Assembly (NCBI GenBank): GCA_022826665.1
Contig: JAJDUK010000021.1
Span: 1-51,182, forward strand
Source of the DNA: Alphaproteobacteria bacterium
GTDB taxonomy: Bacteria; Pseudomonadota; Alphaproteobacteria; UBA828
DNA: 51,182 bases
Direction: 5' to 3'
The translations under genes were made by a program, and so were the position numbers. Positions 61-49,433 of the stretch are shown in pieces (position 1 is the first letter of the stretch; every line of letters starts with the position of its first letter). The notes beneath the pieces were generated by a model. That model saw nothing but the letters and a program-made list of their open reading frames with translations, was not told the origin of the DNA and did no database searches.

Positions 61-109
61 AAAAATGAGCGGCGCGCGTCTCAACACATTGCTTATTCCA
101 GCTGGCTCT

Positions 110-209
110 GTCCCCCTCCCCTCTAACAAGGCGGAGGGGGAACGTAGGTGGCGCCGCCCTCTCTCCCTCTCCTCCCCGCCCGGGAGGAGAGGGCCGGGGC
201 GAGGAGGGG
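110..209. repeat. Dispersed double-hairpin intergenic repeat, copy 1
   Basis: This element matches 35976-36070 over nearly its whole length. It contains an imperfect C-rich/G-rich arm pair at about 110-140, then a perfect 12-base inverted repeat (165-176 with 182-193) around a 5-base loop. It lies downstream of the minus-strand four-cysteine gene that ends at 268. The architecture is that of a REP/BIME-like element; it could also serve as a 3' RNA-stabilising hairpin or a terminator, but no T-tract follows. Confidence 0.7.
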
Positions 210-267
210 CGGTCTCTCGGCGGGCGGTGGGCGCGACGCAGACCGGGACCCTGGTGAGAAATGCGAC

Positions 268-441
268 CTACGCCTCGCCCTCTCGACGCTCGGCAAGCTG
301 AGCGCATTTCTCGCCGCAGAAGACCCGTCGCTCCGGCTCCTCGACCACCCAAAGGCGGCGCGCGATCATGCGCCCGCAGAGCGAGCAGTTGACGATCTTT
401 ACCTCGTACCAGGGCTTTTCGATCTCTTCCCAATGCCCCAT
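268..441 (-). CDS. 57-aa four-cysteine (zinc-ribbon-like) protein beside HyuA-HyuB
   Basis: This small gene starts ATG 9 bases after the stop of the fused hydantoinase gene, so the two are almost certainly co-translated. The protein has four cysteines, C19, C22, C42 and C46, in a C-x2-C-x19-C-x3-C layout expected to bind one metal ion, probably zinc. A WY pair precedes the first knuckle and a basic ARR segment follows it. The 79-residue protein at 45386-45625 has the same cysteine spacing and shares WY, NCS-x-CG, M-x-AR, WV and FC-x2-KCA, so the reading frame is supported by conservation. By analogy with the small zinc-binding subunits of acetone/acetophenone carboxylases, it may be a subunit or maturation factor of the hydantoinase-type enzyme; that role is inference. 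No database family is assigned here. Confidence 0.82.
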   Translation of the reverse strand: MGHWEEIEKPWYEVKIVNCSLCGRMIARRLWVVEEPERRVFCGEKCAQLAERREGEA

Positions 442-450
442 GGCCGCCCC

Positions 451-3400
451 CTATTCGGCTGCCACTGCGGAAGGCGAGACGGTCGCGGGCGCCGCCGGCG
501 GCTCGGGCCGCGCGGTGCGCATCCGGGTGCGGAGCGCCTCGGTCGCGGCCTCGTCCACCGCGAGGGAGCCGTTGCTGGCGGCGAGCACCACCCCGTAAGC
601 GCTCTCGGCCGCCTCGCGCGTGACGTTGCGGTCCAGCACATCTGCAAGCACCCGCGCCAGCGCCCGCTCCAGCGGGTCGCCGTAGCCGCCTCCGCCCGGC
701 GCCTCCAGCAGCAGCTCGTCGCCTTCGTGGACCTTGACGTTGTCGAACTTGGTCGGGCTCTCCAGCCCGAAGGCCTCGGAGAAGGTGCGGAACTCCGTGT
801 CGCCCACCCGCTTGACCCGGAACGCCTGGGTGCCGCCTTCCTTTCCACCGAACAGCCCCCAGGGACCCACGAAGTGGCGGTCGGAAAGCGCGCTAACCGT
901 CAGCTCCTTGGCGTACACGCTCACCCGGCGCATGACCGAGAGGCCGCCCCGGTTGCGCCCCGGCCCGCCGGAATCCGGTCTCAGTGCGCAGGCGTGGTGA
1001 AGCAGCGGGAAGCGGCTCTCCAGAATCTCGATGGGCGTGATCTCGATCGTGCTGCCGTGGGCACAGAACAGGTTGGCGTTGCCGTCCGCGTCGTGCCGCG
1101 CGCCCCAGCCGCCGCCTTCGAGATGGAGATGGGCGAAATACTCGCCGGTCTCGGGATGCACGCCGCCCATCGGCAACAGGCAGTTGGTCCCGCCATCGGC
1201 GGCGCAGGTTCGCTCCGGCAACGCCTGCGACATGGCACCCCAGATCGCGTTGATGACCCGCGGCTGGCCATCGGAGTTGCCGCCGACCGAACTGCCCGGA
1301 TGCTCGACATTGAGCAGGCTGCCGGGCGGGCAGATCATCGTAATGGTACGGAACACGCCCTGATTGAGGGGGACGTCGCGGACGTTGATGCTCTGGAGGA
1401 TGCCGGTGTAGGAGGCAGCCGCCGTCGCCACATAGGTCAGGTTGATCGCGGCATCGACCTGCTTGTCGGAGCGGCTGTAGTCGACCAGGATCTCGTCGTC
1501 GTCCACCGTCACGTCCACGCGGAAGACATGGGGCGTGCTATTCCGGGGATCGTCCTCGTAGCGGTCCTCGAAGGAATAGGTGCCGTCCGGGATCGCCTTG
1601 ATCTGCTCGCGCATCCAGCGCTCGGAGGCCGCCATCAGCGCCTTGGTCGCCGCCTCGATCGTGTCCACGCCGTAGTCCCGGATCAGCTCCGGAAAACGGC
1701 GGCCCGCCACCTTGAGGCTCGCCAGCATCGCGTGGAAGTCGCCGAACGTCGCATCCGGGGTGCGGTGGTTGGCGAGGATGACCTTCCACAGCTCCTCGAC
1801 ATGCTCGCCACGCTTCATCAGCTTGATCGGAGGCAGCCGCAGCCCTTCCTGATAGACCTCGCTCGCCGTGACCGCGAAGGAGCCCGGCACCATGCCGCCG
1901 ATCTCCGCGATGTGGGCGATGATCGCCGCGTAGCCCACCAGCTCGCCGTCCACGAAGATGCCTTCCAGCAGCATGTGCTCGGGCATGTGGCAGGAACCCC
2001 GGTAGGGGTCGTTGTGGACGACCACGTCGCCCGGCTCGAAATAGTCCTCGCCCAGCTCCTCGACCACGAAGGGCACCGTGTTCAAGCCGGCGCAGATGAT
2101 CGCCGGGTTGTTCTGCGCCTGGGAGATCAGCTCCAGGTCGCGGTTGAACAGCATGCAGGAGAAGTCCTTGGACTCGCTGAAGAGCGGCGAGTGCGCGGTG
2201 CGCAGGGCCTCCAGGTCCATCTCGTCGCAGATCGCATCGAGCCGGTTGCGGATGACGTTGAGCGTTACCATGTCCTCTGCCGCGCTCTTGCCCCGGCGCT
2301 GTGCCCGGCGCGCGCCGCTCGCGGGCGCGATCTCCAGCACGCCGGAGCCATGCACGATCAGCCTGTCGTCGGGCGCCACGATCACTGTGGAGTCCTCTTC
2401 GAGGATGATCGCCGGACCTTCCATCGTCGCGTCCGCGCCCAGTTCCTCCCGACGGTAGACCGGCGTCTCGACCGCGCCCGCGCCGCGGAACCAGACCGCG
2501 CGCCTGGCCGCCGGCTCCGGCGCCTCGCCGGGCTCGAGCCCCGGCAGGCGCGGCGGCGCCGACGCGCCGAGCGCGAGCACCGTGAGCCGCACGATCTCCA
2601 CCGGGTGGCCCGGCGTCTTGAAGTCGAAGCGGCGCTCATGCTCGGCGTGGAAGGTCTCCACCAGCTCCAGAGCCGTGCCCGCCAGCACGCTCGGCGTCAC
2701 CGGCAGCTCGATCTCGTGGCTCTGCAGCCGGTAGCGGGCGGATGCGCTGCGCGTGATCACCGGCTCGCCCTCGAACCCCTCTTCCAGCAGCTCGCGCACG
2801 GCCTGCTCTTCGAGCGAACGGTAGGCTTCGGCGATGTCGCTGAGCGCCATCGTGTCGGAGCGGAAGGCGACCGTCCGGCTCTTCTCCACGCGGACGTCGG
2901 CGACCACAGTGCCGAAGGCGGAGCAGAGCCCCGGATAGGGCGGCACCAGGGTCCGCCGCATGCCAACTGCGCGCGCGAGCTCGGCACCGTGGACCGGGCC
3001 CGCGCCACCGAAGGCGATCAGGTCGAAGTCGCGGTAATCGAGGCCGCGCTCGATGGTGACGCGGCGTACTGCCGTCGCCATGTTGTCGTTGACGGTCTCT
3101 ACGATGGTGAGCGCCGCCTCTTCGACCGTGAGGCCGAGCGGCTCAGCCACCGTTGCCACCGCCGCGCGTGCCGCAGCAGCGTCGAGCGGCATCCGCCCGC
3201 CGAGGAAGTAATCGGGGTCGATGCGGCCGAGCACCACGTTGGCGTCGGTCACCGTGGGCTCTGTCCCGCCCTTGCCGTAGCAGGCCGGGCCGGGTTCCGC
3301 GCCGGCGCTTTGCGGCCCCACCTTGAGCAGGCCGTCCTGCCCCACGTAGGCGATCGAGCCGCCGCCGGCGCCGATGGTGGTGAAATCGATATGCGGGGCA

Positions 3401-4371
3401 ACGACATGGATGCCCCAGTCGAGGTCGATCTGCGGCACCGAGCGGTAATCGCCACCTTCGATCATGCCCACGTCGCAACTCGTGCCGCCCATGTCGAAGG
3501 TGACGGCATTTTCCGCGCCCTCGGCGGCGGCGAAGTAATGGCCACCGATCACACCGCCAGCAAGGCCGGAGAGAAAGATCTCGGCGGTGCGGTCCGGCGC
3601 CCGTTCCGAGAGCATCTGGCCGCCGTTGGACTTCATGATAGCGAGCCGGGCGGGCAGCGAGCGTGCCTCCAGCTCCCGCTCGAGATCGGTGATGAAGCTC
3701 TGCAGGATGGGCCGGACCGAGGCGGCTAGGATGGTCGTGGTCGCCCGGTGGTACTCGCGCCAGATGGGCACGACCTCGTGAGAGAGCGAGACCGGGAGAC
3801 CGGGGAAGCGCTCGCGGAGCGCCGAGCCGAGCGCAGCCTCATGGGCAGGATTGCGGTAGCTGAACAGGAAGTTGACTGCGATGGAGCAGGCCTCGCCTCC
3901 GCCGTTGGCGCCATTGCCGCTCTCGCCGATTACACCGGCTACCTCGTCGAGGACGCGGGCGATCTCGGCGTCTTCCAGCGCCGTGATCACGTGACCGTGG
4001 TAGTCGATCCGCTCGCGCACGCCCAGGCAGTCGCGCCGCGCCACGCCCGGCTCCGGCCGGCGCCAGCTCAGGTCGTAGGCGTGGGGGCGCGAAATGCTGC
4101 CGATCAGCGGAATGTCCTCGAAGCCTGCCGTCGCGAGGTAGATGACGCGCGCACCGGTGCCCTGAAGGCGCGCGTTGGTCGCGATGGTGGTTCCGAGCAC
4201 GAAGTGGCGCACTGCCTCCGGCGCGATGCCGGAGCCGTCGAGGGCGTCGAGCACCCCGATTTCAGGCGCGGCGGCGGTGCTCGGCCGCTTGGCGACGACA
4301 ATCCCGCCGTCCTCGTCGATAGCGACGAGATCGGTGTTGGTGCCTCCTGTATCGACCCCGACTCGCAGCAT
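451..4371 (-). CDS. Fused hydantoinase A/B (oxoprolinase/carboxylase-like) protein
   Basis: At 1306 residues this chain joins a HyuA-type ATPase half (about 1-690) to a HyuB-type half (about 701 to the end), the arrangement of 5-oxoprolinase. The N-terminus carries the DTGGT-x-TD phosphate-binding motif, and a second actin-fold motif, TFDMGGTSCDVG, lies near residue 295. The HyuB half begins near the MVTLNVIRNRL segment and carries HNDPYRGSCHMPEH, the metal/substrate region conserved in HyuB and acetone-carboxylase subunits. The family performs ATP-dependent opening of hydantoin or oxoproline rings, or ATP-dependent carboxylation of ketones; the substrate cannot be told from sequence. It is preceded by an alpha/beta hydrolase 14 bases upstream and followed by the four-cysteine gene. 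A paralogue lies at 45618-49433. A proline/alanine-rich tail of about 25 residues ends the protein. Confidence 0.93.
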   Translation of the reverse strand: MLRVGVDTGGTNTDLVAIDEDGGIVVAKRPSTAAAPEIGVLDALDGSGIAPEAVRHFVLGTTIATNARLQGTGARVIYLATAGFEDIPLIGSISRPHAYDLSWRRPEPGVARRDCLGVRERIDYHGHVITALEDAEIARVLDEVAGVIGESGNGANGGGEACSIAVNFLFSYRNPAHEAALGSALRERFPGLPVSLSHEVVPIWREYHRATTTILAASVRPILQSFITDLERELEARSLPARLAIMKSNGGQMLSERAPDRTAEIFLSGLAGGVIGGHYFAAAEGAENAVTFDMGGTSCDVGMIEGGDYRSVPQIDLDWGIHVVAPHIDFTTIGAGGGSIAYVGQDGLLKVGPQSAGAEPGPACYGKGGTEPTVTDANVVLGRIDPDYFLGGRMPLDAAAARAAVATVAEPLGLTVEEAALTIVETVNDNMATAVRRVTIERGLDYRDFDLIAFGGAGPVHGAELARAVGMRRTLVPPYPGLCSAFGTVVADVRVEKSRTVAFRSDTMALSDIAEAYRSLEEQAVRELLEEGFEGEPVITRSASARYRLQSHEIELPVTPSVLAGTALELVETFHAEHERRFDFKTPGHPVEIVRLTVLALGASAPPRLPGLEPGEAPEPAARRAVWFRGAGAVETPVYRREELGADATMEGPAIILEEDSTVIVAPDDRLIVHGSGVLEIAPASGARRAQRRGKSAAEDMVTLNVIRNRLDAICDEMDLEALRTAHSPLFSESKDFSCMLFNRDLELISQAQNNPAIICAGLNTVPFVVEELGEDYFEPGDVVVHNDPYRGSCHMPEHMLLEGIFVDGELVGYAAIIAHIAEIGGMVPGSFAVTASEVYQEGLRLPPIKLMKRGEHVEELWKVILANHRTPDATFGDFHAMLASLKVAGRRFPELIRDYGVDTIEAATKALMAASERWMREQIKAIPDGTYSFEDRYEDDPRNSTPHVFRVDVTVDDDEILVDYSRSDKQVDAAINLTYVATAAASYTGILQSINVRDVPLNQGVFRTITMICPPGSLLNVEHPGSSVGGNSDGQPRVINAIWGAMSQALPERTCAADGGTNCLLPMGGVHPETGEYFAHLHLEGGGWGARHDADGNANLFCAHGSTIEITPIEILESRFPLLHHACALRPDSGGPGRNRGGLSVMRRVSVYAKELTVSALSDRHFVGPWGLFGGKEGGTQAFRVKRVGDTEFRTFSEAFGLESPTKFDNVKVHEGDELLLEAPGGGGYGDPLERALARVLADVLDRNVTREAAESAYGVVLAASNGSLAVDEAATEALRTRMRTARPEPPAAPATVSPSAVAAE

Positions 4372-4385
4372 CCTGCGTCCCTCCT

Positions 4386-5333
4386 CTAGCTCGTGCCGAA
4401 CGCTTTGCGCAGCGCGGCGCAGGCGGCAGCGTGCGCCTCGGCGGCCACGTCGAAGCGCCCGGTGGCGGTCCAGAAGCCGTGGATATGGCCCTCGTAGTTG
4501 CGGTAGTCGGTGGGCACACCCGCCGCCTTGAGCCTCTCGGCGTATTCGCGGCCGTCGTCGAAGAGCGGATCGTGGCTCGCGGTCATCACCATCGCCGGCG
4601 GCAACCCGCTCAGGTCATCGGCGCGGATCGGTGCGGCGCGCACGTCCGAGCGCTCGGACTCGTCGTTGAAGTAGCAATTGAAGAACCAGGTCATGGCCTC
4701 GGCGGTGAGCACGTAGCCGTCCGCGAAGGTCTTGTAGGACGGGCGGCCTTCGTCCGTGTCGGTGACTGGATAGACCATGAGCTGGAAGACCAGCGGTGGC
4801 CCGCCCTCGGCCTTCGCCCGCTGCGCGGTGACGGCGGTAATGCAACCGCCGGCGGAATCGCCACCGATGGCGATGCGTGCCGGATCGCCGCCGATCTCGG
4901 CGCAGTTCTCGGCGACCCAGCAAAGCGACGCCCAGGCGTCGTCCGTGGGCTTCGGAAACTTGTTCTCCGGCGCCTTGCAATAGTTGACCCCCACCACGAT
5001 ACAGCCCGCTCCCTCGCAGAGCGCGCGGCAGACACCGTCGTGGGTGTCGATGCTGAGCACCACGTAGCCGCTGCCGTGGTAGTTGACGTAGACCGGCAGC
5101 GGTGTGGCGGGGTCCGCCCCTTTGGGCCAGTAGAGGCGGATACGGATCGGCCCGTTGGGGCCGGGGATATCGCGGTTCTCGACCCGGCCGACGTCAATGC
5201 CCGGTGCCTGCAGGCCCATCACCAGATCGTTGAAGGCCTCCCGTACCTCGTCGAGCGGCCGTTCCGCGAGCGGCGGCACCTCGATCGCGTTGATTTCGTC
5301 GCAGAACTCCTGAACCTGCGGATGCAGTGCCAT
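4386..5333 (-). CDS. HSL-family alpha/beta hydrolase (esterase/lipase-like)
   Basis: This 315-residue protein belongs to the hormone-sensitive-lipase branch of alpha/beta hydrolases. The nucleophile elbow is GDSAGG with Ser160, the acid is Asp255 in SHDPLFDDG, and the catalytic His285 lies in GHIHGF. The oxyanion-hole motif reads HGSGY (86-90) rather than the usual HGGG. The start chosen is the ATG preceded by a GGGGGAG ribosome-binding site, 13 codons inside the longer open frame. It sits 14 bases upstream of the fused hydantoinase gene, so the two are probably one operon. The hydrolase may process an ester or amide related to the hydantoinase substrate (inference). No signal peptide is seen, so it is likely cytoplasmic. 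Confidence 0.9.
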   Translation of the reverse strand: MALHPQVQEFCDEINAIEVPPLAERPLDEVREAFNDLVMGLQAPGIDVGRVENRDIPGPNGPIRIRLYWPKGADPATPLPVYVNYHGSGYVVLSIDTHDGVCRALCEGAGCIVVGVNYCKAPENKFPKPTDDAWASLCWVAENCAEIGGDPARIAIGGDSAGGCITAVTAQRAKAEGGPPLVFQLMVYPVTDTDEGRPSYKTFADGYVLTAEAMTWFFNCYFNDESERSDVRAAPIRADDLSGLPPAMVMTASHDPLFDDGREYAERLKAAGVPTDYRNYEGHIHGFWTATGRFDVAAEAHAAACAALRKAFGTS

Positions 5334-5403
5334 GATCTCCCCCTCGCGCGTCGTGCTGTCTCCCTGCCACATCTTAGCGGTGGCTACCCGATTGCGGAAA
5401 CCG

Positions 5404-5473: not shown

Positions 5474-6475
5474 TCACTCCAGCCTCACCACCGTGCCGCT
5501 AGTCGCCGATTCATGTGCCGCGAGCACGGTCCGCACAACCTCCATCGCTTCCTCCGGCGTGATCAACGCCGGGCGCGTGCCCTCGCGGACGCAGCGCGCG
5601 AAGTAAGACCATTCATCGTGCAATGCACCGCCTGTGACGCCGTGCAGCTCCGGCCAGTAGGTCGTGTCCGGGCTCCTGAAGCCCTCCTTCGAGCAGACGG
5701 CGATGTTGGGGAAGGTATCCTGGATGTGGATGAAGCCCTCGGTGCCGATCACCGACATACGCTCGTCGAGCTCGAAGGGCGAGCCGTCCGGCATGCACCA
5801 GGCACCCTCGTAGAGCGCGCTCGCGCCGTTGTCGAAGCGGTACATGAGCTGGGCCACGTCGTCATACCGGCAGCCAAGCGAGTTGACGGTCTGTGCGTAG
5901 GTGCTCACGACCTTGGCCCCGGTCAACCATAGCATCATGTCGGTATCGTGGGAGCAGGTGTGCAGAATGGGGCCGATCGTCTCGAGCTGATCGATCACCC
6001 ACCGCGCCGGCACGTTGCGCCGGGCGTTGATCGCGACCACCTTGCCGATTTGGCCCGCGTCAATCTCGCGCTTGGCGGCGATATAGCGCGGGCTGAAGCG
6101 GCAGATATGGCCCACCATGAGAATGGCGTCGCCATCGCGCGCGGCATCGCACATGCGCTGGCAGTCCTCCACCGTCGATGCCATAGGCTTCTCGACCAGG
6201 ACGTGCTTGCCGGCCGCGAGCCCGGCGAGGGTCGGCGCGGCGTGGTGGTCCCAGGGCGTGACGACGGCAAGGACGTCAATCGCCGGGTCCTCGACAAGCG
6301 CCCGGTAGTCGGTGCAGGTGCGAGCGACACCGTGCTCGTGTGCCATCTCAGCCAGGCGTTCTTCCGAGTTGTCGCAAAGCGCAACGAGCTCGAGCTGCGG
6401 ATGGTCGGCGATAGCCCGGCAATGCTCTGTCCCAAACCAGCCGACCCCGATGACTCCGACACGCAGCCGCTCCAT
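5474..6475 (-). CDS. Gfo/Idh/MocA-family NAD(P)-dependent oxidoreductase
   Basis: This 333-residue protein starts with a Rossmann fold (GVIGVGWFG at about 7-15), followed by the family signature VEKPMAST, whose lysine helps catalysis. A catalytic-type histidine region, HTCSHDTDMMLWL, follows mid-protein. Members oxidise or reduce sugars, cyclitols and related alcohols. The start is the ATG at 6475 rather than an upstream TTG, because Rossmann proteins begin close to the first strand and GGAGCGGG precedes the ATG. It lies about 140 bases upstream of the hydrolase-hydantoinase operon on the same strand and may be co-transcribed. The substrate is unknown. A distant family member occurs at 44219-45187, also beside a hydantoinase locus. 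Confidence 0.9.
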   Translation of the reverse strand: MERLRVGVIGVGWFGTEHCRAIADHPQLELVALCDNSEERLAEMAHEHGVARTCTDYRALVEDPAIDVLAVVTPWDHHAAPTLAGLAAGKHVLVEKPMASTVEDCQRMCDAARDGDAILMVGHICRFSPRYIAAKREIDAGQIGKVVAINARRNVPARWVIDQLETIGPILHTCSHDTDMMLWLTGAKVVSTYAQTVNSLGCRYDDVAQLMYRFDNGASALYEGAWCMPDGSPFELDERMSVIGTEGFIHIQDTFPNIAVCSKEGFRSPDTTYWPELHGVTGGALHDEWSYFARCVREGTRPALITPEEAMEVVRTVLAAHESATSGTVVRLE

Positions 6476-6626
6476 TGATCCCGCTCCGTCCTTTGTCAAT
6501 CAATCTGCTAACGTCGAAGCCTGCGGTGGAGTGTTCCACACGAGCCCCGGTTTGCGGAAGGACGCTAGTTCGGGTCGCTTACCGGGACAACACTGAGAGC
6601 GCTCGGCCAACCGCCTCAATGTTGGC

Positions 6627-12421: not shown

Positions 12422-13291
12422 TCACGGCTGCCGGGCGCAGTGCTGGTAGGTCTCGGGCCGGCGGTCGCGGAAGAACTGCCACGTGTCGCGGACCTCGCGA
12501 ATCTGGTCGAGGTCGAGCTCGGCAACCACCAGTTCGTCGTCCTGATCGCCACCCTGCGCCAAGATCTCGCCGCGCGGATTACAGAAGTAGCTAGAGCCGT
12601 AGAACACGTGGTTGCCGAAGCTCGGCTCCGTGCCGACCCGGTTGTTGGTGCCGATGAAGATGCCGTTGGCGATGGCCGCCCCCACCTGCTCCAGGTTCCA
12701 GATGTGATCGCTGAGGCCCTTGAAAGTCGCCGACGGGTTGAACACCAGCTCCGCGCCGCCCAACGCAAGCGCGCGCCAGCCTTCGGGGAAGTGGCGGTCG
12801 TAGCAGATATAGACCCCGACCTTGCCGACGGCCGTGTCGAACACCGGGTAGCCGAGATCGCCGTAAGCGAAATAATGCTTCTCGTCGTAGGGCCCGATCT
12901 TCGGGATGTGAATCTTGCGGAACTTGCCGAGGTAGCTGCCATCCGCATCGATCACCGCGGCGGTGTTATAGAACTTGCCATTGTGGTCGCGCTCGTAGAC
13001 CGGCGAGACGATGACCATGCCGTGCTTCTTGGCCGCGTCGCACATCGCCTGGGTGGTGGGCCCGTCCGGCACCGCCTCGGCGGACTCGAACCACTTTTCG
13101 TCGATGGTGGCGGGGAAGTAGGGCGCGTTGAAGACCTCCTGGAGCCCGAGAACCTGCACGCCCTTCTGCGCCGCCTCCTCGATAAGCGTCATGTGCGCGG
13201 CGATCATCTTGTCACGGATCGCCTCGATGGAGTCCGTCGCCGGATCCCCCTTCAGGTTCATCTGGATGAGGGCTGCCTTGACCTTGCGCAT
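12422..13291 (-). CDS. Nitrilase-superfamily carbamoyl-amidase (beta-ureidopropionase-like), copy A
   Basis: This 289-residue C-N hydrolase shows the Glu-Lys-Cys triad at E52 (GLQEVF), K126 (GKFRKIHIP) and C163 (YICYDRHFPEGWR). The segments FYNTAAVID and IFNPSAT-like VFNPSATFKGLSD resemble beta-ureidopropionases and N-carbamoylputrescine amidases, which release CO2 and ammonia from N-carbamoyl substrates. It is a tandem paralogue of the next upstream gene, with catalytic residues at identical positions. With the downstream-pathway enzyme MmsA nearby, reductive pyrimidine breakdown (N-carbamoyl-beta-alanine to beta-alanine) is a reasonable inference, but no dihydropyrimidinase is in the window. 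Confidence 0.9.
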   Translation of the reverse strand: MRKVKAALIQMNLKGDPATDSIEAIRDKMIAAHMTLIEEAAQKGVQVLGLQEVFNAPYFPATIDEKWFESAEAVPDGPTTQAMCDAAKKHGMVIVSPVYERDHNGKFYNTAAVIDADGSYLGKFRKIHIPKIGPYDEKHYFAYGDLGYPVFDTAVGKVGVYICYDRHFPEGWRALALGGAELVFNPSATFKGLSDHIWNLEQVGAAIANGIFIGTNNRVGTEPSFGNHVFYGSSYFCNPRGEILAQGGDQDDELVVAELDLDQIREVRDTWQFFRDRRPETYQHCARQP

Positions 13292-13315
13292 GAAAGCCTC
13301 CTCTCGCTCGCCCGC

Positions 13316-14188
13316 TCAGACCTGCCACGACGCCACTGCGCCGTAGGTCTCGGGTCTGCGATCACGGTAGAACTTCCACCCGTCCCGCACCTCGGCAATC
13401 ATGGCGAGGTCGAGCTCGGACGTGACCAGCGCATCCCGATCGTCCGGCCCCTGGTCGAGAATCTCGCCGCGCGGATTGACGAAGTAGCTGGAGCCGTAAA
13501 AGTAGCCGGTGTTCCAAGGCGCCTCCATGCCGACGCGGTTATTGGCGCCGATGTAGACGCAGTTCGCCACCGCGGCCGCCGGCTGTTCCAGGTTCCAGAG
13601 ATGGTCGCTCAGGCCCCGCGCGGTCGCAGACGGGTTGAAGATCACCTCGGCGCCGTTCATGGCGAGCTCGCGCCAGCCTTCGGGGAAATGCCGGTCGTAG
13701 CAAATGTAGACACCGACCTTGCAGAACGCCGTCTCGAAAACTGGATAGCCGATGTCGCCCGGCTTGAAGTAGTACTTCTCGCAGAAACCGACGACGTGGG
13801 GGATGTGAATCTTGCGGAACTTGCCGAGGTAGCGCCCGTCTGCGTCGATCACGGCGGCGGTGTTGTAGTAGACGCCAGTCTGCGCCTCCTCATAGACAGG
13901 CACCACCATCGCCATGCCGAGGCGCGCGGCTTCCGTCCGCATGCGCTGGACCGTCGGCCCGTCAGGCACCCGCTCCGCGGTGCGGTACCAGGAGTTGTCC
14001 TGCACCGCGCCGATGTAGGGCAGGTTGAAGAGCTCCTGCAGGCCCAGAATTTGCACGCCTTCGCTCGCCGCCTGCTCGATCAGGGGCAAGTGGGCTGCGA
14101 TCATTTTCTCGCTGATCTGCTCGGGCGTGTCGTGCTCGACCTCGCCCTTGAGGCTCATCTGGATAAGCCCGGCCTTCACGGTCGCCAT
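13316..14188 (-). CDS. Nitrilase-superfamily carbamoyl-amidase (beta-ureidopropionase-like), copy B
   Basis: At 290 residues this is the upstream partner of copy A, 24 bases apart. The triad is again E52, K126 and C163, with no insertions between the copies up to there. The start is the ATG preceded by GGGAG, 21 codons inside the longer open frame. Differences cluster in loops near the active site: copy B has HVVGFCEKYYFKPG where copy A has KIGPYDEKHYFAYG, and NCVYIGANNRVG versus NGIFIGTNNRVG. The copies may therefore handle different carbamoyl substrates or assemble into mixed oligomers (inference). Confidence 0.9.
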   Translation of the reverse strand: MATVKAGLIQMSLKGEVEHDTPEQISEKMIAAHLPLIEQAASEGVQILGLQELFNLPYIGAVQDNSWYRTAERVPDGPTVQRMRTEAARLGMAMVVPVYEEAQTGVYYNTAAVIDADGRYLGKFRKIHIPHVVGFCEKYYFKPGDIGYPVFETAFCKVGVYICYDRHFPEGWRELAMNGAEVIFNPSATARGLSDHLWNLEQPAAAVANCVYIGANNRVGMEAPWNTGYFYGSSYFVNPRGEILDQGPDDRDALVTSELDLAMIAEVRDGWKFYRDRRPETYGAVASWQV

Positions 14189-14273
14189 CGCCACCGCTCC
14201 CCTGCTGCCGCCAAGGCCGGCAGCGTAGCCCGGAACTCCTGCAAGGGCCACGGTGCGTGCGGCACGCGTTCCG

Positions 14274-15683
14274 TTACAGCGGCGGGCGGTGTTGGCGCCA
14301 GGGGCGAGCCTCTTCGAGCGCGGCGCCGATGCGGAGCACGGTCAGGTCGTCGAAGCGGCGGCCGACGATCTGCAGGCCCGTGGGCAACCCGTCGGCGGAG
14401 AAGCCCGAAGGAATCGAAAGCGCAGGCAGCTTGAGCGCGTTGAACTGCATGGTCATGTCCATGCTCTGGTGCCGGCCGTCGGCATCGTCCCCCATGGAGC
14501 CGAGCTCATCGTAGTCGACCGTCGGCGCCGGAATCGCCTCGGTCGGGCAGAGCAGGGCATCGCAGCGCTCGAGGATGGGGCGCAACTTGTTCCAGGCCTC
14601 GGTGTAGACTGTCTCGGTCTTCATTAGCTCGACCGCGCTCATCTTCCTGCCTTCCTCCATCGACGCGACGACGGAGGGGTGCATCTTGTCCCGCCAGCGC
14701 TCCAGGTGGTGGCCGAAGTGCGTGGCCTGGAATACGCCCCAGTAGGCCCACCAGGCCTCGTTGAACGCCGCGCTCCAACCGAGCTCGACGGGCTCGATCT
14801 CCGCCCCCGCCTGCTCCAGAGCGGCCGCGGCGGCGCGGGTGTTCGCTTCGACGTCCGGGTCGATCCGGTAGTAGCCAAGGTCGATGGAGAGCGCGAGGCG
14901 GAGGCCACGAACGTCGCTCGGCGGCGGCACGTCGATTACGAGAGCCGGCGTCAACGTGTTGAGGTCGCGCTCATCCGGCCCCTGGCAGAGCTTCAGGAAC
15001 AACGCGGCATCGGCCACGGTGCGCGAGAGCGGGCCGTGGCAGCACATGTAGTCGAACTGGGTCGGCAGGAATTCGAACGGGATCCGTCCCGAGCTCGGCT
15101 TCAGCCCCACGCAGCCGCTATGCGACGCGGGAATCCGCACCGAACCGCCGGCGTCCGAGCCTTCCGCCAACGGCACGCAGCCGGCGACCACGGCGGCGGC
15201 GGAGCCGCCGGACGAGCCGCCCGGCGTGCGGTCCGGGTTCCACGGATTGCGGGTGATGCCCCAGAGCGGGCTGTCGGTGAGGCTGGAGAAGGCGAACTCG
15301 GGCGTCGTCGTCTTGCCCACCATGATGGCGCCCGCATCGCGCAGGCGCTCGACCACGAGCGCGTCGTAATCCGGCACCCAGTCTTTGTAAGCGTAGGAGC
15401 CGAAGGTGGTCGTCTTGCCCTTCGTGGGCGTGAGGTCCTTGATGGCGATGGGGACGCCATGCAGAGACCCCACATCGTCGCCCGCGGCGATCGCCTGCTC
15501 CGCCGCTCGCGCCTGCCCGATAGCCTCCTCCGGGTAGGTGAAGCAGAAGCAGTTGAGCGTCGGGTTGACCTCTTCGATGCGCGCGAGCGCGTTCGTCACC
15601 AGGTCCACGGGCGAGAGCGAGCCGTCCCGGATGAGAGCGGCTGCCTCCGTCGCCGAGAGGTAGGAGAGGTCGTCGTTGCTCAT
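14274..15683 (-). CDS. Amidase-signature family amidase
   Basis: This 469-residue enzyme has the complete amidase-signature triad: Lys82 in AIKDL, cis-Ser157 in GGSSGGS and nucleophile Ser181 in SDAGGSVRIP. It hydrolyses an amide or carbamate to acid plus ammonia or amine. GatA is another member of the family, but there is no gatB or gatC beside this gene, and the C-terminal half differs from GatA, so a catabolic role is favoured. It sits between the nitrilase pair and mmsA on the same strand, with gaps of 85 and 37 bases, suggesting a shared nitrogen-catabolic operon. Confidence 0.92.
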   Translation of the reverse strand: MSNDDLSYLSATEAAALIRDGSLSPVDLVTNALARIEEVNPTLNCFCFTYPEEAIGQARAAEQAIAAGDDVGSLHGVPIAIKDLTPTKGKTTTFGSYAYKDWVPDYDALVVERLRDAGAIMVGKTTTPEFAFSSLTDSPLWGITRNPWNPDRTPGGSSGGSAAAVVAGCVPLAEGSDAGGSVRIPASHSGCVGLKPSSGRIPFEFLPTQFDYMCCHGPLSRTVADAALFLKLCQGPDERDLNTLTPALVIDVPPPSDVRGLRLALSIDLGYYRIDPDVEANTRAAAAALEQAGAEIEPVELGWSAAFNEAWWAYWGVFQATHFGHHLERWRDKMHPSVVASMEEGRKMSAVELMKTETVYTEAWNKLRPILERCDALLCPTEAIPAPTVDYDELGSMGDDADGRHQSMDMTMQFNALKLPALSIPSGFSADGLPTGLQIVGRRFDDLTVLRIGAALEEARPWRQHRPPL

Positions 15684-15720
15684 CGCTCCCGGCTCTCCTG
15701 CAGCCCCGGCCGCCGCGGCG

Positions 15721-17220: not shown

Positions 17221-17256
17221 CACAGTCCCCCGATTCTCGTCGGTTCTTTGTGCCGG

Positions 17257-18375
17257 TCAGGCGGCGAGTGCGCGCTCCGGCGCGAGATAGTCGTGGCCGA
17301 GGTCGAGCGCGACAGCCTCATGAGTGACTCGCCCCTGGCAGACATTGAGGCCGTGCATGAGGTGATCATCGTCGCGCATGGCCTGCCGCCAGCCTTTCCC
17401 CGCAAGCGCCAGCACGAAAGGCAGCGTCGCGTTGCTGAGCGCGAAGGTCGAGGTGCGGGCCACGGCACCTGGCATGTTGGTGACACAGTAATGCAGGACG
17501 TTGGCCACCTTGTAGGTGGGATCGGCATGGGTGGTCGGCCGGCTGGTCTCGAAACAGCCGCCCTGGTCGATCGCCACGTCGACCACGACGGCGTTGCGGC
17601 GCATCTCGTCCAGCATGTCGCGGCGCACCAGCTTGGGTGCGGCCGCACCGGCAATGAGCACGGCGCCGATGACCAGGTCGGCGTTGTTCACCGTCTCCTC
17701 GATAGCCTGGACGGTCGAGTAGACGGTCGTGGCGCTGGCGCCGAAGATCTCCTCCAGCTGGCGGAGGCGCGGGATCGAGCGGTCGATGATCGTGACCTGC
17801 GCGCCCATGCCCACCGCCATGCGGGCTGCGTGCGTGCCCACCACGCCGCCGCCCAGGATCACCACGTCGGCCGGCGGCACGCCGGGGACACCGCCAAGCA
17901 GCACGCCCCGACCCCCCTGCTCCTTCTCAAGGCAATGGGCGCCCGCCTGGATCGACATGCGGCCCGCGACCTCGCTCATGGGTGCGAGCAGCGGCAGGCC
18001 GCCCCGCGCATCGGTCACCGTCTCGTAGGCGATGGCGATGCAGCTGGAATCGATTAGAGCGTCGGTCTGGGCAGCATCGGCCGCGAGGTGGAGATAGGTG
18101 AAGAGCACCTGGTCGGCCCGCAGCATGGCGCATTCGTCCGGCGAGGGCTCCTTCACCTTCACGATCATCTCGGCCGCGCCAAAGATCTCCGCCGCGGCAT
18201 CCACCACCTGGGCGCCGGCGCGCTCGTAATGCACGTCGAGGAGCCCGATTTCGGTCCCGGCGTCCTTCTCGACCATGACCCGGTGGCCATGTTGCACGAG
18301 CTCGCGCACGCCGCCGGGCGGGATGCCGACGCGGTACTCGTGGACCTTGGTCTCCTTGGGAACGCCGATGAGCAT
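17257..18375 (-). CDS. ald: Alanine dehydrogenase
   Basis: This 372-residue NAD-dependent enzyme interconverts L-alanine and pyruvate plus ammonia. The start [10 protein letters not shown] is the family N-terminus, and length matches the usual 371 or so residues, so the inner ATG at 18375 is chosen, with GGGGAA 9 bases upstream. The NAD-binding strand-loop-helix [21 protein letters not shown] lies near 168-188, and conserved [18 protein letters not shown] precedes it. It is 36 bases upstream of mmsA on the same strand; together they channel amino nitrogen and C3 carbon to central metabolism. Confidence 0.95.
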
Positions 18376-18460
18376 GGCCGTCATTTCCCCAATTGATAAT
18401 GAATGGTGCCCGCCGTGGCCGCCCATGCGGCCCGCTCGGCGTGGCTGTCGTGGCCGGCGG

Positions 18461-44168: not shown

Positions 44169-44218
44169 GTCTCGCCCCGTGATACCATCGACCGGCAGTA
44201 GAGCGTAGGGAGGTGAGC

Positions 44219-45187
44219 ATGGCGGCGAAACCGGTCGGCTGGGGCATGATCGGCACGCGAGGCTGGAGCGACATGATCCTCGGCCCGGCGATCAACGCGG
44301 CGCGGGGCGCGCGGTTCAAGGCCGTGCTGTCGACGAAGCAGGAGAACGCCGAGCGTTACTGCGCGAGCCACGGCGTGGCCCGCGGCTATACGGACCTCGA
44401 GGCCTTCCTCACCGATCCCGCCGTCGACGTGGTGTGGATCGCGAGCCCTAACCACCTGCACAAGGAGCAGACCATCGCCGCGCTCAAGGCCGGCAAGCAC
44501 GTGCTCTGCGAGAAGCCCATGGCGATGAACCAGGCCGAATGCCGGGCCATGATCAGGGCCGCCAGGAAGGCGGAGCGCCTGCTCACCATCGGCTACAACA
44601 GCCGCCACCACCCGAGACTCGACGCCCTTCGCACGCAGTGGCAAGGCGGCCGCTTCGGCGCGCCGGTGCATATGCACTGCCAGTTCCGCTACCGCTACCC
44701 CGAGGTGCCCGACGACTGGTGGCGCCTCGACGACGCGAAGTCGGGCTGCTGGGTGCTGGGCGATATCGGCACCCACTTCATCGACCTGCTGCGCTGGTTC
44801 AACGGAGAGGCGAAAACGGTGCACGCCCATCTCGCCAACAAGGCCTACGGCCGCTCCGCTGACACTGCCGCAGTCTCAATCGGCTTCGCGAACGGTGCCT
44901 TCGGCACGATCACGGCCTCCACCGCCGTGACCACCGGCGGCGGGTTCGAGCTGCTGGGTAGCGAGAGCTGCTGCACGATCGAGGGCGGCTTCGTCGGCAT
45001 TCCGGGCACCATGACCACGGTGCGCAAGGGCGGCGAGCCGCGCACCGTCCCGCTCGCGGGCCACGACACTTACAAGGCCCAGGTGGAGAGCATCACCCGC
45101 GCCATCGCCCGCGGCACGCCGCTCGCGGTCACGGCCCAGGACGGGCTCGCTAACGTCCGCATCATCGAGCAGGCGCGCGGCTGGTAG
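44219..45187 (+). CDS. Gfo/Idh/MocA-family oxidoreductase
   Basis: This 322-residue protein has a Rossmann fold beginning GWGMIGTRGWSDMI, the family lysine motif CEKPMAMNQAE near 95-105, and a GDIGTHFIDLLRWF histidine region near 180-193. The chosen ATG at 44219 has GGGAGGTG just upstream; an in-frame GTG at 44213 is inside that ribosome-binding site. Base composition is again like the core genome. It lies about 200 bases upstream of the second four-cysteine/HyuA-HyuB pair. Whether it is part of that unit is uncertain, but the first hydantoinase locus also has a family member close by. Confidence 0.9.
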   Translation: MAAKPVGWGMIGTRGWSDMILGPAINAARGARFKAVLSTKQENAERYCASHGVARGYTDLEAFLTDPAVDVVWIASPNHLHKEQTIAALKAGKHVLCEKPMAMNQAECRAMIRAARKAERLLTIGYNSRHHPRLDALRTQWQGGRFGAPVHMHCQFRYRYPEVPDDWWRLDDAKSGCWVLGDIGTHFIDLLRWFNGEAKTVHAHLANKAYGRSADTAAVSIGFANGAFGTITASTAVTTGGGFELLGSESCCTIEGGFVGIPGTMTTVRKGGEPRTVPLAGHDTYKAQVESITRAIARGTPLAVTAQDGLANVRIIEQARGW

Positions 45188-45345
45188 AGGGGCGCTGTCC
45201 GTACCTCACCCTCTCTTTCATTTCCCTCAGGCGCCGGGCGCTCACTCCGTTCGCTTGGCTCCGCGCTACGCGCGCGGCGCGGTCGCGCCGTCCGGGCCTA
45301 ACGGCCCGGTAGCCGCGCGGTTGACCCGCATGGCGCGCCATGAAA

Positions 45346-45385: not shown

Positions 45386-45625
45386 ATGAGCGGCAAGTGG
45401 CTCCCGTTTGAGCTCGCCTGGTACGACACGCGAATTTTCAACTGTTCCTTCTGCGGCATCATGATGGCGCGGGAATACTGGGTGGACGACGAGTTCCCCG
45501 GCGAGATGTTCTGCGAGGACAAGTGCGCCGACGTGAAGCGGCGGGTCCGGGCGGAGTTTGCCGAGGCGAAGGCGGCCGGCCGCGTCGAGGAAGCGCGCCA
45601 CGGTGAGGAGGCAAGCGATGTATAG
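45386..45625 (+). CDS. 79-aa four-cysteine (zinc-ribbon-like) protein beside HyuA-HyuB
   Basis: The protein has C20, C23, C43 and C47, in the same C-x2-C-x19-C-x3-C spacing as the 57-residue protein at 268-441. It shares WY, NCS-x-CG, M-x-AR, WV and FC-x2-KCA. After the ribbon it carries a charged helix (ADVKRRVRAEFAEAKAAGRVEEA), absent from the other copy. The stop overlaps the ATG of the fused hydantoinase gene by 8 bases (ATGTATAG), so translation is coupled. GGGAG precedes the ATG. Probable metal-binding subunit or chaperone of the enzyme; role inferred from location and duplication only. Not a family I can name. Confidence 0.85.
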   Translation: MSGKWLPFELAWYDTRIFNCSFCGIMMAREYWVDDEFPGEMFCEDKCADVKRRVRAEFAEAKAAGRVEEARHGEEASDV

Positions 45626-48600
45626 GGTCGGCATCGACACCGGCGGCACGTTCACGGACTTGGTCGCGCTGGACGACGCGAGCGGGAGCATTCGCACCGT
45701 CAAGGTCCCATCCACGCCGCAGCAGCCTGCCGCCGCGCCGCTCAACGCCATCGGCCAAAGCAAGCTCACACCGGACGAGATCGGCCGCATTGTGCTCGGC
45801 ACCACCATCGCCACCAATGCGCGTCTGCAGAAGAAGGGCGCGACCGTGCTCTACGTTGGCACCGACGGCGTGCAGGACGTGCCCATCATCGGCCTGATCG
45901 CGCGCAAGGAGGCCTACAACCCGGCGTGGGAGAAGCCCAGTGCCGGCGTGCTGCGCCGCCATGTCTTCGGCATCAAGGAGCGCGTCGATCACAAGGGCAA
46001 CATCCTGGTCCCGCTGGAAATGCCCGAGCTGGAGCGGCTCGGCGACTGGATCGACGAATGGCGCGCGAGTGACCCCACGCAGGAGTGGGCGGTCGCGGTC
46101 AACCTGCTTTTCTCCTACGTGGATACCAGTCACGAGGAAGCCATCGGCGCCTACCTCGCCGAGCGCTTCCCTGATCTGCCGGTCTCGCTCTCGAGCGACG
46201 TCTGCCCGATCTGGCGCGAGTATCAGCGGAGCGCCACGGTCATCACCGACGCCTTCATCAAGCGCATCATCGACCGCTTCGTGGGTCAGGTCTCGACCGA
46301 CCTGGAGACGGCGGGGATCGAGGCGCCGCTCTCGCTCATGAAGTCGAACGGCGGCCATCTGCAGGCGGAATCCGCCGGCGACGCGCCGGTTCAGCTGCTG
46401 CTCTCGGGCCTCGCCGGCGGGGTCATCGCCGGCGCCCGCTTCGCCCGCGACCATGCGGACGGCAACGGCGTCACCCTCGACATGGGCGGCACGAGTTGCG
46501 ACGTCGGCCTTGTCACCGACGGCGCCTTCGGCTCCACCACCGAATACGAGGTGGAATGGGGCGTGCCGGTGAGCGCGCTCTTCATCGACTACACCACCAT
46601 CGGCGCGGGCGGCGGCTCCATCGCCTATGTCGATGTCGGCGGCCTGCTCCGCGTGGGACCTCGCAGCGCAGGTGCCGACCCCGGCCCGGCCAGCTACGGC
46701 AAGGGCGGGACCGAGCCCACGGTCACCGACGCGAACGTGGTGCTCGGCCGTCTCGACCCCGACTACTTCCTGGGCGGCGAGATGACGCTGGACGCCGCCA
46801 AGGCGCAGGAGGCGGTGGCCGGGCTCGGCCAGCAACTCGGTCTCACGGCGGTGGAGACCGCGCGCGCGATCCTGGAGACGGCGGCCGAGAACATGGCGGA
46901 CGCGATCCGCCTGATGACGGTCGAACGTGGCATCGATCACCGCGACTATGCCCTGATCGCCTTCGGCGGCGCCGGCCCGCTCCACGCGGTCGATGTCGCG
47001 GCCCCGCTGGAGATGAAGAAGGTCGTGGTGCCGCCCCATCCGGGGCTCTGCTCGGCGCTCGGCACGCTGCTCACCGACCTCCGTGTCGACCGCGCGCGCA
47101 CGGTCAACCACCGCTCCGACACGGTGGATCTGCCTGTCCTCAACGGTCAGCTCCAGGCGCTCGCCCGCGAGGCGGTCGAGGAACTCAAGCGCGATGGGCT
47201 GGAGGGCGAGGCGCGGGTCACTGGCTACATCAGCATGCGCTACATGGGGCAGAACTTCGGCGAGCTGGTGCAGCTCGACACGCTGGAACTCGACGAGGAC
47301 GGCTTCGCCCGGGCGCTCGAAGGGCTCCACCGCCAGCACGAGGAGCTCTACGGCTACGCGCTCCGCGACAAGGTGGCCGAGATGACCGAGGTGCGGGTGA
47401 TCGCCGTCGGCGAGGAGCGCACCGATGCGACGCTGAGCGCGCCCGCCACGGGTTCGGGTCAGGCCCACGCCCACCGCGAGGTCTACTTCGACGGCGACCA
47501 GCCGCTGGAGACACCGATCTACCGCCGCGCGGAACTCCCCGCAGGCTCCGTGGTCGCAGGCCCCGCGATCATCGACGAGATGGACTCCACCACGCTCGTG
47601 CCGCCGCAGAGCGAGGTCGAGATCGGCGCCGACGGCAGCCTGATCGTGAGCCTGCCCAGGGCGGCGAGCGCTGCGGTCGGCACCGGACGGCTCGCGCCGG
47701 AGAAAGACCCGGTCACGCTCACCGTGGTCAACAACGCGCTCGGCAACATCTGCAACGAGATGGAAAGCGCCATGGTGCGCACCGCGTATTCGCCGATCTT
47801 CAGCGAATCGCGGGACTTCTCGTGCTGCCTGTTCGACCGCCACCTGCGCATGGTGGGCCAGGCCGAGATGAACCCGGCGATCATCTGCGCCGGGCTGCAC
47901 ACGGTGCCGCTCTGCGTGAAGGAGATGGAGGAGCCGATTGAGCAGGGCGACGTGATCGTCCACAACGATCCCTACCGCGGCCAGTGCCACATGCCGGAGC
48001 ACCTGCTAATGAAGCCGGTCTTCGTCGACGGCACGCTGATCGGCTACGCCGCCAACATCGCCCACATCGCCGAGATCGGCGGCATGGCGGTGGGCTCCTT
48101 CGCCAGTACGGCGACCGAGGTGTTTCAGGAGGGGCTGAGGCTGCCCCCGGTGAAGCTGCTTTCGCGCGGCGAGTACGTGAAGGACGTCTGGCGCATCGCG
48201 CTCGCCAACCACCGCACCCCCAACACCACCTGGGGCGACTTCCACGCGATGATCGGCTCGCTCAACACCGCCGAGCAGCGGCTGGGGGCCATGGTGAAGC
48301 GGCTCGGCGTCGAGACCTTCGAGAAGATCTGCGACGCGCTCGTGGATCACGCCGAGCACTGGATGCGGAACGAGATCCGCAAGCTTCCCAACGGCATCTA
48401 CAAGGCCGAGGACTACTTCGAGGACGACGGGGTTAGCACCAATCGCTTCTACTTTCGCCCGACCGTGCACATCCGGGAGGAGGAGATCGTGGTCGACCTC
48501 TCGGAATCGGACGAGCAGGCGCGGGGGCCGATCAACGTCACCTACGTGGCGACCGCCGCCGCCGGCTGCACCGCAGTGCTGCAGACCCTCTGCGCCCGCG

Positions 48601-49433
48601 ACGTGCCGCTCAACAGCGGCTGCTTCAAGCCTCTCCGCGTGGTGGCGCCGCCTGGCACGGTGGCGAACCCGGTGTTTCCCGCGCCGAGCGTCGCCGGCAA
48701 CACCGAGGGCCAGCCCCGCATCATCGCGGCGGTACAGCACGCGCTCTCTAAGGCCGTGCCGGATATGGTGAGCGCCGCAGAGGGCGGCACCGCTTGCAAT
48801 CTGCTGCTCGGCGGCATCCACCCCGATACCGGCGAGTACTGGACCCACTACCAGCTGGAAGGCGGCGGCTGGGGCGGCCGGCTCGGCAAGGACGGCAATA
48901 CCGCGCTCTGCTGCGCGCACGCGAGCACCATCCGGGCGACGCCGATCGAGGTGTTCGAGACCCGCTTCCCGCTCCGTGTGATGAAGTACGAGATCCGCCC
49001 CGATTCAGGGGGCGCAGGCAAGTGGCGGGGCGGGCTCGGCTGCTGGCGCCAGTTCGAGGTGATTGCGGATGCGATCAGCGTAAGCGCGCTCACCGACCGC
49101 ATCACCGAGGGACCCTATGGGCTGATGAAGGGAGAGGCTGGCGCACCCACGGGCTTCTTCGTCAAACGGGTCGAGGACGAAGAGTTCCGCACCTTCAAGG
49201 AGGTCTATGGCACCGTAAGCCCGACCAAGTTCGTCAACATCCGGCTGCACCGGGGCGACCAGATCCTGGTCCGCGTGCCGGGGGGCGGCGGATACGGCGA
49301 CCCGCGCGAGCGGGCGGAGGACGCGCTCCGCGCCGACCTGGAGGACGGCTTCGTCAGCGTGGAAGGGCTCTCGGCTTACGGCCGCGACGCGAGCTTCGCG
49401 GACGCGGTGAAGGAAGCTGCGGCGGCGGAATAG
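45618..49433 (+). CDS. Fused hydantoinase A/B (oxoprolinase/carboxylase-like) protein, second copy
   Basis: This 1271-residue protein has the same architecture as the copy at 451-4371: VGIDTGGTFTDL at 4-15, a TLDMGGTSCDVG motif near 285, then a HyuB half from about 698 with ICNEMESAMVRTAYSPIF and VHNDPYRGQCHMPEH. The start is the ATG at 45618, 20 codons inside the longest frame, because it overlaps the four-cysteine gene and begins at the family N-terminus. Sequence drift from the other copy is substantial, pointing to an old duplication or separate acquisitions. It is followed, convergently, by a betaine-type ABC transporter. Substrate unknown; ring-opening of hydantoin-like compounds or carboxylation are both possible. 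Confidence 0.94.
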   Translation: MYRVGIDTGGTFTDLVALDDASGSIRTVKVPSTPQQPAAAPLNAIGQSKLTPDEIGRIVLGTTIATNARLQKKGATVLYVGTDGVQDVPIIGLIARKEAYNPAWEKPSAGVLRRHVFGIKERVDHKGNILVPLEMPELERLGDWIDEWRASDPTQEWAVAVNLLFSYVDTSHEEAIGAYLAERFPDLPVSLSSDVCPIWREYQRSATVITDAFIKRIIDRFVGQVSTDLETAGIEAPLSLMKSNGGHLQAESAGDAPVQLLLSGLAGGVIAGARFARDHADGNGVTLDMGGTSCDVGLVTDGAFGSTTEYEVEWGVPVSALFIDYTTIGAGGGSIAYVDVGGLLRVGPRSAGADPGPASYGKGGTEPTVTDANVVLGRLDPDYFLGGEMTLDAAKAQEAVAGLGQQLGLTAVETARAILETAAENMADAIRLMTVERGIDHRDYALIAFGGAGPLHAVDVAAPLEMKKVVVPPHPGLCSALGTLLTDLRVDRARTVNHRSDTVDLPVLNGQLQALAREAVEELKRDGLEGEARVTGYISMRYMGQNFGELVQLDTLELDEDGFARALEGLHRQHEELYGYALRDKVAEMTEVRVIAVGEERTDATLSAPATGSGQAHAHREVYFDGDQPLETPIYRRAELPAGSVVAGPAIIDEMDSTTLVPPQSEVEIGADGSLIVSLPRAASAAVGTGRLAPEKDPVTLTVVNNALGNICNEMESAMVRTAYSPIFSESRDFSCCLFDRHLRMVGQAEMNPAIICAGLHTVPLCVKEMEEPIEQGDVIVHNDPYRGQCHMPEHLLMKPVFVDGTLIGYAANIAHIAEIGGMAVGSFASTATEVFQEGLRLPPVKLLSRGEYVKDVWRIALANHRTPNTTWGDFHAMIGSLNTAEQRLGAMVKRLGVETFEKICDALVDHAEHWMRNEIRKLPNGIYKAEDYFEDDGVSTNRFYFRPTVHIREEEIVVDLSESDEQARGPINVTYVATAAAGCTAVLQTLCARDVPLNSGCFKPLRVVAPPGTVANPVFPAPSVAGNTEGQPRIIAAVQHALSKAVPDMVSAAEGGTACNLLLGGIHPDTGEYWTHYQLEGGGWGGRLGKDGNTALCCAHASTIRATPIEVFETRFPLRVMKYEIRPDSGGAGKWRGGLGCWRQFEVIADAISVSALTDRITEGPYGLMKGEAGAPTGFFVKRVEDEEFRTFKEVYGTVSPTKFVNIRLHRGDQILVRVPGGGGYGDPRERAEDALRADLEDGFVSVEGLSAYGRDASFADAVKEAAAAE

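What the first reader, a model, noticed from the sequence alone, without database searches (positions are those of the whole stretch)
268..441. Overlooked four-cysteine microprotein paired with a fused HyuA-HyuB gene
A 57-codon gene lies 9 bases after the fused hydantoinase stop. Its C-x2-C-x19-C-x3-C pattern and surrounding residues recur in the 79-residue protein at 45386-45625, which overlaps the other fused hydantoinase gene. Two independent pairings, in opposite gene order (downstream at one locus, upstream at the other), argue for a real partnership rather than chance linkage. Acetone and acetophenone carboxylases are known to contain HyuA- and HyuB-like subunits plus small subunits; these proteins may be a minimal equivalent attached to an oxoprolinase-like fusion.
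Basis: partly seen in the sequence, partly recalled or inferred. Interest (0 to 1): 0.82.

Follow-up and report, generated by a model that had tools for sequence, protein, structure and literature searches.

The report
Zinc-finger partner of fused hydantoinases
Two tiny, overlooked genes encode a four-cysteine zinc-finger protein that almost always sits beside, and sometimes is fused to, one particular branch of ATP-driven enzymes of the hydantoinase/oxoprolinase family, so it is very probably a missing third part of those enzymes.

Summary
Both small genes are real and homologous (44% identity) and under purifying selection. Each sits next to a fused HyuA-HyuB gene: 9 bp downstream at one locus, overlapping by 8 bp upstream at the other. 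Relatives form a wider four-cysteine family (C-x2-C-x16-23-C-x3-C) without a Pfam or NCBIfam model. They occur in six arrangements: before or after fused HyuAB, before HyuA, between HyuA and HyuB, after HyuB, and fused to the N-terminus of HyuB. In 46 of 48 decidable cases the gene is adjacent or fused. It accompanies one HyuAB clade, marked by Asp-to-Glu changes in HyuB metal-site motifs. In the plasmid collection all 20 records of that clade have it; protein searches found it with no other HyuAB. Micro and HyuA distances correlate (r = 0.94). HyuA-HyuB fusion is not the key: most fused HyuAB genes lack the partner and many partnered ones are unfused. The protein resembles treble-clef (eL24/FCS/TRASH) fingers, not the acetone/acetophenone carboxylase gamma subunit, so that analogy is functional only. 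Best reading: a structural zinc subunit held on the HyuB half. Binding, zinc content and substrate are untested.

The parts
268..441 (-). Micro A: 57-aa zinc-finger protein, Cys19-x2-Cys22-x19-Cys42-x3-Cys46; gene 9 bp downstream of fused HyuAB-1
442..452 (-). 9-bp gap and G-rich ribosome-site-like stretch (AGGGGG, overlapping the HyuAB-1 stop) before micro A
   Evidence: sequence
451..4371 (-). Fused HyuA-HyuB (HyuAB-1, 1306 aa); HyuA half about 2302-4371, HyuB half about 454-2286; HyuB motif H-M-P-E-H ... H-I-A-E-I-G-G
   Evidence: Pfam PF05378, PF01968, PF19278, PF02538
45386..45625 (+). Micro B: 79-aa zinc-finger protein, same cysteine spacing as micro A, with a charged C-terminal tail
45618..49433 (+). 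Fused HyuA-HyuB (HyuAB-2, 1271 aa from ATG 45618); start overlaps the micro B stop by 8 bp, suggesting translational coupling; HyuB half about 47694-49430
44213..45187 (+). Gfo/Idh/MocA oxidoreductase upstream of micro B; same neighbour kept in four relatives
   Evidence: synteny
4386..5372 (-). Alpha/beta hydrolase (hormone-sensitive-lipase type) directly upstream of HyuAB-1, likely same operon
5474..6499 (-). Gfo/Idh/MocA oxidoreductase upstream of HyuAB-1, 31% identical to the one at 44213

Best explanation
The small proteins are a third, zinc-binding structural subunit of one clade of ATP-dependent hydantoinase/oxoprolinase-family enzymes. HyuA phosphorylates the substrate (or bicarbonate) and HyuB completes the reaction at its metal site (inferred from solved relatives). 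The small protein, a treble-clef-like finger holding one zinc through four cysteines, is predicted to sit on the HyuB half and stabilise it or its contact with HyuA, as the unrelated gamma subunit does in acetone and acetophenone carboxylase. Shown here: the genes are coding, conserved, co-located, co-diverging and sometimes fused to HyuB; the partnered HyuB clade has a distinct metal-site motif. Inferred: zinc binding, contact with HyuB, structural role. Guess: the partnered enzymes open lactam- or imide-like rings to amino acids, because several clusters carry aminotransferase, GABA transaminase and semialdehyde dehydrogenase genes.
For: Homology and coding. Adjacent or fused in 46 of 48 decidable loci. 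N-terminal fusion to HyuB in seven Agrobacterium vitis / Allorhizobium ampelinum records. Plasmid specificity, exactly the 20 HyuB records above 49% identity to the Sulfitobacter HyuB, none below 40%. All linked HyuA in one clade. HyuB Glu motif on one side of a branch, SH-aLRT 100. Micro versus HyuA distances r = 0.94, 0 of 5000 permutations, 18 non-redundant pairs. Cys4 invariant across 17 divergent members. eL24 profile match E 0.0017. Beta-beta-alpha model, pLDDT 80.8; YacG, eL24/RLP24, FCS and TRASH folds lead the structural second look at low Z. Precedent for zinc-binding small subunits bound to the HyuB homologue: PMC5214803 and PMC5543143. Operons with gabT, semialdehyde dehydrogenase and amino-acid ABC genes.
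Against: No complex could be modelled and no zinc measured. One subclade with the same HyuB motif (10 HyuA rows) has no detectable micro gene nearby, so the subunit is dispensable or supplied in trans there. One C-type micro stands alone (G013, L102). Fold matches are weak (Z 3.3 at most; Foldseek none significant). The R. leguminosarum fusion rests on one homopolymer base and may be a sequencing error. The window loci lack the transaminase genes on which the substrate guess rests.
Confidence: 0.66

Rival explanations
1. Metal-delivery factor: the small protein is a zinc or other metal chaperone that loads the HyuB active site and does not stay in the enzyme.
For: Four cysteines; presence tracks a HyuB clade whose metal-site motifs changed from Asp to Glu; TRASH-type fingers have been proposed as metal handlers (own knowledge).
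Against: Stable fusion to the HyuB N-terminus in seven plasmid records suits a permanent subunit better; the spacing is that of a structural finger; the subclade with the same Glu motif does without it.
Confidence: 0.13
2. Local regulator: the small zinc finger binds DNA or RNA and controls its own hyuAB operon; co-location and co-divergence follow from that.
For: Small basic C-terminus; treble-clef fingers include nucleic-acid binders such as eL24; tight operon linkage.
Against: Fusion to HyuB; order shuffled to positions inside and after the operon, including between hyuA and hyuB; the conserved aromatic/acidic motif WYETRI / NGYYIE looks like a protein-contact surface; separate GntR or LacI regulators already sit in several clusters.
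Confidence: 0.07
3. Direct member of the acetone/acetophenone carboxylase gamma-subunit family (PF08882), shrunk and diverged beyond recognition.
For: Same partner type (HyuB), same metal-ligand class, also found fused to HyuB; a single CxxCG knuckle aligns.
Against: No Pfam match; profile comparison covers only 20 columns with probability 48; different second knuckle (C-x3-C rather than C-x2-C) and loop length; genuine PF08882 relatives coexist in the same genome beside other HyuB genes.
Confidence: 0.08
4. Linkage without function: a small neutral gene hitchhiking with one HyuAB clade.
For: Missing from one subclade.
Against: Purifying selection, invariant cysteines across archaeal and bacterial members, and six gene arrangements that all keep linkage.
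Confidence: 0.02

Closest known systems
Acetophenone carboxylase gamma and acetone carboxylase gamma subunits (PF08882; PDB 5L9W, 5M45, 5SVB)
   Same: Small Cys4 zinc subunit of a HyuA/HyuB-family enzyme, bound mainly to the HyuB-like subunit, gene in the operon
   Different: Larger, CxxC ... CxxC with a 45-50 residue loop, described as Yippee-like; no detectable sequence relationship; found with other HyuAB clades
eL24 / zf-FCS / MYM-TRASH / YacG treble-clef fingers
   Same: C-x2-C-x~19-C-x3-C pattern, beta-beta-alpha model, best profile and structural matches
   Different: No member known to me is a metabolic-enzyme subunit; all Pfam scores below curated cut-offs
Caprolactamase CapAB (6YRA), fused N-methylhydantoinase (7HK5) and 5-oxoprolinase
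   Same: HyuA/HyuB domain order, ATP motif and HyuB metal-site layout; nearest solved relatives of the fused genes
   Different: HyuB metal motifs use Asp where the partnered clade has Glu; caprolactamase is described as two subunits, with no small one; scores far below NCBIfam equivalog cut-offs

Membership tests
Hydantoinase/oxoprolinase family (the fused genes) | HyuA N, HyuA, HyuA C and HyuB Pfam domains | tested here: met
   All four above the gathering score in both fused genes
Caprolactamase / acetophenone carboxylase equivalogs | NCBIfam equivalog cut-off | tested here: not met
   Best 464 bits against a cut-off of 1000
Caprolactamase-type HyuB active site | Metal ligands Asp41, His99, Asp102, His124 (CapB numbering, PMC8453981) | tested here: not met
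   Asp41, His99 and His124 positions kept; the position 102 equivalent is Glu (HMPEH) in both window genes and in all but one HyuB of the clade; CapB, Apc and 7HK5 have Asp there
Acetone_carb_G / Apc-Acx gamma (PF08882) | Match to the family profile | tested here: not met
   No hit up to E 5; HMM-HMM alignment limited to one knuckle, 20 columns, probability 48
Acetone_carb_G / Apc-Acx gamma (PF08882) | CxxC ... CxxC zinc site with a long loop (Cys22, 25, 75, 78 in Apc gamma) | tested here: not met
   C-x2-C, short loop, C-x3-C in all members
Acetone_carb_G / Apc-Acx gamma (PF08882) | Physical binding to the HyuB-like subunit | not testable with these tools
   Only natural fusion to HyuB as indirect evidence
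Treble-clef FCS/MYM-TRASH/eL24 finger | Cysteine pattern C-x2-C-x~19-C-x3-C | tested here: met
   Exact in window genes; loop of 16-23 in divergent members
Treble-clef FCS/MYM-TRASH/eL24 finger | Curated profile score | tested here: not met
   zf-FCS 13.4 bits against 22.4 in a relative; eL24 chains in PDB E 0.0017 by hmmsearch
Treble-clef FCS/MYM-TRASH/eL24 finger | Beta-hairpin plus helix fold around one zinc | tested here: inconclusive
   AlphaFold2 E12-18, E25-31, H44-56, pLDDT 80.8; Z at most 3.3
Treble-clef FCS/MYM-TRASH/eL24 finger | Bound zinc | not testable with these tools
   No metal measurement possible

The most novel reading that the evidence does not exclude
The clade is a distinct, uncharacterised class of three-part ATP-dependent enzymes: HyuA kinase, a HyuB with a Glu-containing metal site, and an obligatory treble-clef zinc subunit acquired independently of the carboxylase gamma subunit, so that HyuAB enzymes recruited unrelated small zinc proteins at least twice.
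Probability: 0.4. Interest if true: 0.72.

Novelty: new variant of a known kind. Interest (0 to 1): 0.62.

Why it matters
Hydantoinase/oxoprolinase-family genes are common, and the hydrolase branch is described as two-part (PMC5214803: Hyd lack gamma orthologues). A missing third subunit would tell biochemists what to co-express when reconstituting enzymes of this clade, and would show that a family known for one kind of zinc helper recruited a second, unrelated one. It also gives a testable function to small genes now annotated as hypothetical or not annotated at all.

Tried and rejected
Fusion of HyuA and HyuB as the determinant: rejected; partners occur with split genes, and fused genes of other clades lack the micro. 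PF08882 membership: rejected by profile, spacing and HMM-HMM comparison. Brucella hit L009: rejected, internal to a 574-codon open frame with no hyu gene beside it. Hits in G278 and G110: rejected, stops inside. An apparent HyuAB-micro fusion in G015 (1402-codon frame): rejected, HyuB ends at a TAA before the micro. Viral contigs: no relatives. Foldseek against the PDB: nothing significant. Widening by an archaeal centre failed. Literature searches found no paper on this pairing.

Full report
Observation. Micro A (268-441, minus) starts 9 bases after the stop of a 1306-codon fused HyuA-HyuB gene. Micro B (45386-45625, plus) overlaps the ATG (45618) of a second fused gene by 8 bases. They are homologous over 55 residues at 44% identity, E 7e-17, with the same cysteine spacing, C-x2-C-x19-C-x3-C. 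Neither reaches any Pfam or NCBIfam cut-off. GC3 of 0.81 and 0.86 and low dN/dS among orthologues (0.06-0.30 for B, 0.12 for one A pair, 0.03-0.24 for the third type) show that they are protein-coding and constrained.

Extent of the family. In the same taxonomic order, 15 of 22 genomes have A- or B-type members. Looking at the plasmid relatives of the fused gene revealed more distant members that similarity to the window proteins alone had missed: between hyuA and hyuB in Rhizobium leguminosarum (WP_113541613.1), after hyuB in Sulfitobacter dubius (WP_243263862.1), before hyuA in the haloarchaeon Halalkalicoccus jeotgali (WP_158306598.1), and fused to the HyuB N-terminus in Allorhizobium ampelinum (WP_012650545.1). 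A profile of these found a third member in the window's own genome, 118 bp upstream of a HyuA-HyuB-HyuB cluster on another contig. Across 17 divergent members only the four cysteines, one glycine, one tyrosine and the start Met are invariant. The family is narrow: 6 and 9 of 385 sampled genomes of the class in two searches (one hit in each search is a broken frame), and only the own genome among 378 sampled from the phylum. These scans score a limited number of candidates per genome, so the counts are lower bounds.

Linkage. Counting loci with enough flanking sequence, A/B-type members are adjacent to HyuAB in 16 of 16 and C-type in 11 of 12. In plasmids, 19 of 20 records are adjacent or fused and one (Methylobacterium) lies 6 kb upstream in a same-strand cluster. 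Two further loci are cut off by contig ends and were not counted. One true orphan was seen (G013, L102). A query with one C-type HyuB finds 333 plasmid records: the 20 above 49% identity are exactly those with a micro gene, the next is at 39.5%, and none of the others is detected with the micro queries. Many records are near-copies of one strain group, so the number of independent cases is smaller than 48; the non-redundant set used for the distance test has 18 pairs.

Clade and active site. On a HyuA tree all linked genes fall in one group of 48 rows (SH-aLRT 80 at its base; main subgroups 100). Within it one subgroup of 10 lacks the gene, which reads as loss or supply in trans. The HyuB halves of this group carry H-x-P-E-H and H-x-x-E-(I/V/T)-G-G, where other clades, including caprolactamase and the fused N-methylhydantoinase of known structure, have Asp: 58 EE, 28 DD, one DE. 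The EE and DE rows are one side of a branch with full SH-aLRT support. By the CapB numbering in PMC8453981 the first change hits a metal ligand (Asp102). The micro-less subgroup shares the motif, so the motif marks the clade rather than requiring the micro. Micro and HyuA distances correlate at r = 0.94, exceeding all 5000 permutations; shared descent by linkage would give this too, so it shows long co-inheritance rather than contact.

Fold. The family profile matches eL24 chains (E 0.0017). AlphaFold2 gives two strands and a helix for micro A at pLDDT 80.8 and the same layout at lower confidence for micro B. A second structural look ranks YacG, eL24/RLP24, an FCS finger and a TRASH finger among its best, with low Z, and Foldseek alone finds nothing significant. 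I call it treble-clef-like, not proven.

Mechanism and comparison. Acetophenone and acetone carboxylases have a small Cys4 zinc subunit bound to the HyuB homologue, thought to be structural (PMC5214803; PMC5543143). The micro matches this role in partner and metal-ligand type, but not in family: PF08882 does not match, an HMM-HMM comparison aligns one knuckle only, and true PF08882 domains lie beside, or fused behind, other HyuB genes in the same genomes. So HyuAB enzymes appear to have taken on unrelated zinc proteins more than once. The likely place is on HyuB, because the natural fusions are to HyuB. Several C-type clusters carry GABA transaminase, succinate-semialdehyde dehydrogenase or other aminotransferase genes and amino-acid ABC transporters, consistent with opening lactam-like rings to amino acids. 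At the window loci the shared neighbour is a Gfo/Idh oxidoreductase, so their substrate may differ.

Limits. No complex, no metal and no activity could be tested. The tree is a quick search with long branches. The R. leguminosarum fusion may be a sequencing error; the A. vitis / A. ampelinum fusion is seen in seven records.

Noticed in passing
window 45205-45310 and window 108-210: Two families of dispersed intergenic repeats of about 95 bp, each with some 40 copies in the genome. At several places (C28, C73, C42, C36, C15) one copy of each lies back to back, as if they were halves of a composite element.
   Followed up: partly
L125 (G000:C36), L129-L132, L140: An acetone-carboxylase-gamma (PF08882) zinc domain, CGDCG...CCPGCG, appears fused to the C-terminus of a divergent HyuB in this genome and its relatives; separate PF08882 genes sit after other HyuB genes (L126, L139, L141).
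   Followed up: partly
   Followed up: no
L084, L101, L108, L117, L118: Clusters with one HyuA and two or three HyuB paralogues in a row; the role of the extra HyuB is unknown. Most of these lack the micro gene.
   Followed up: no
window 12422-18525: Run of nitrogen-compound genes: two N-carbamoylputrescine-amidase-like hydrolases, an amidase, methylmalonate-semialdehyde dehydrogenase and alanine dehydrogenase, between the two HyuAB loci.
   Followed up: no
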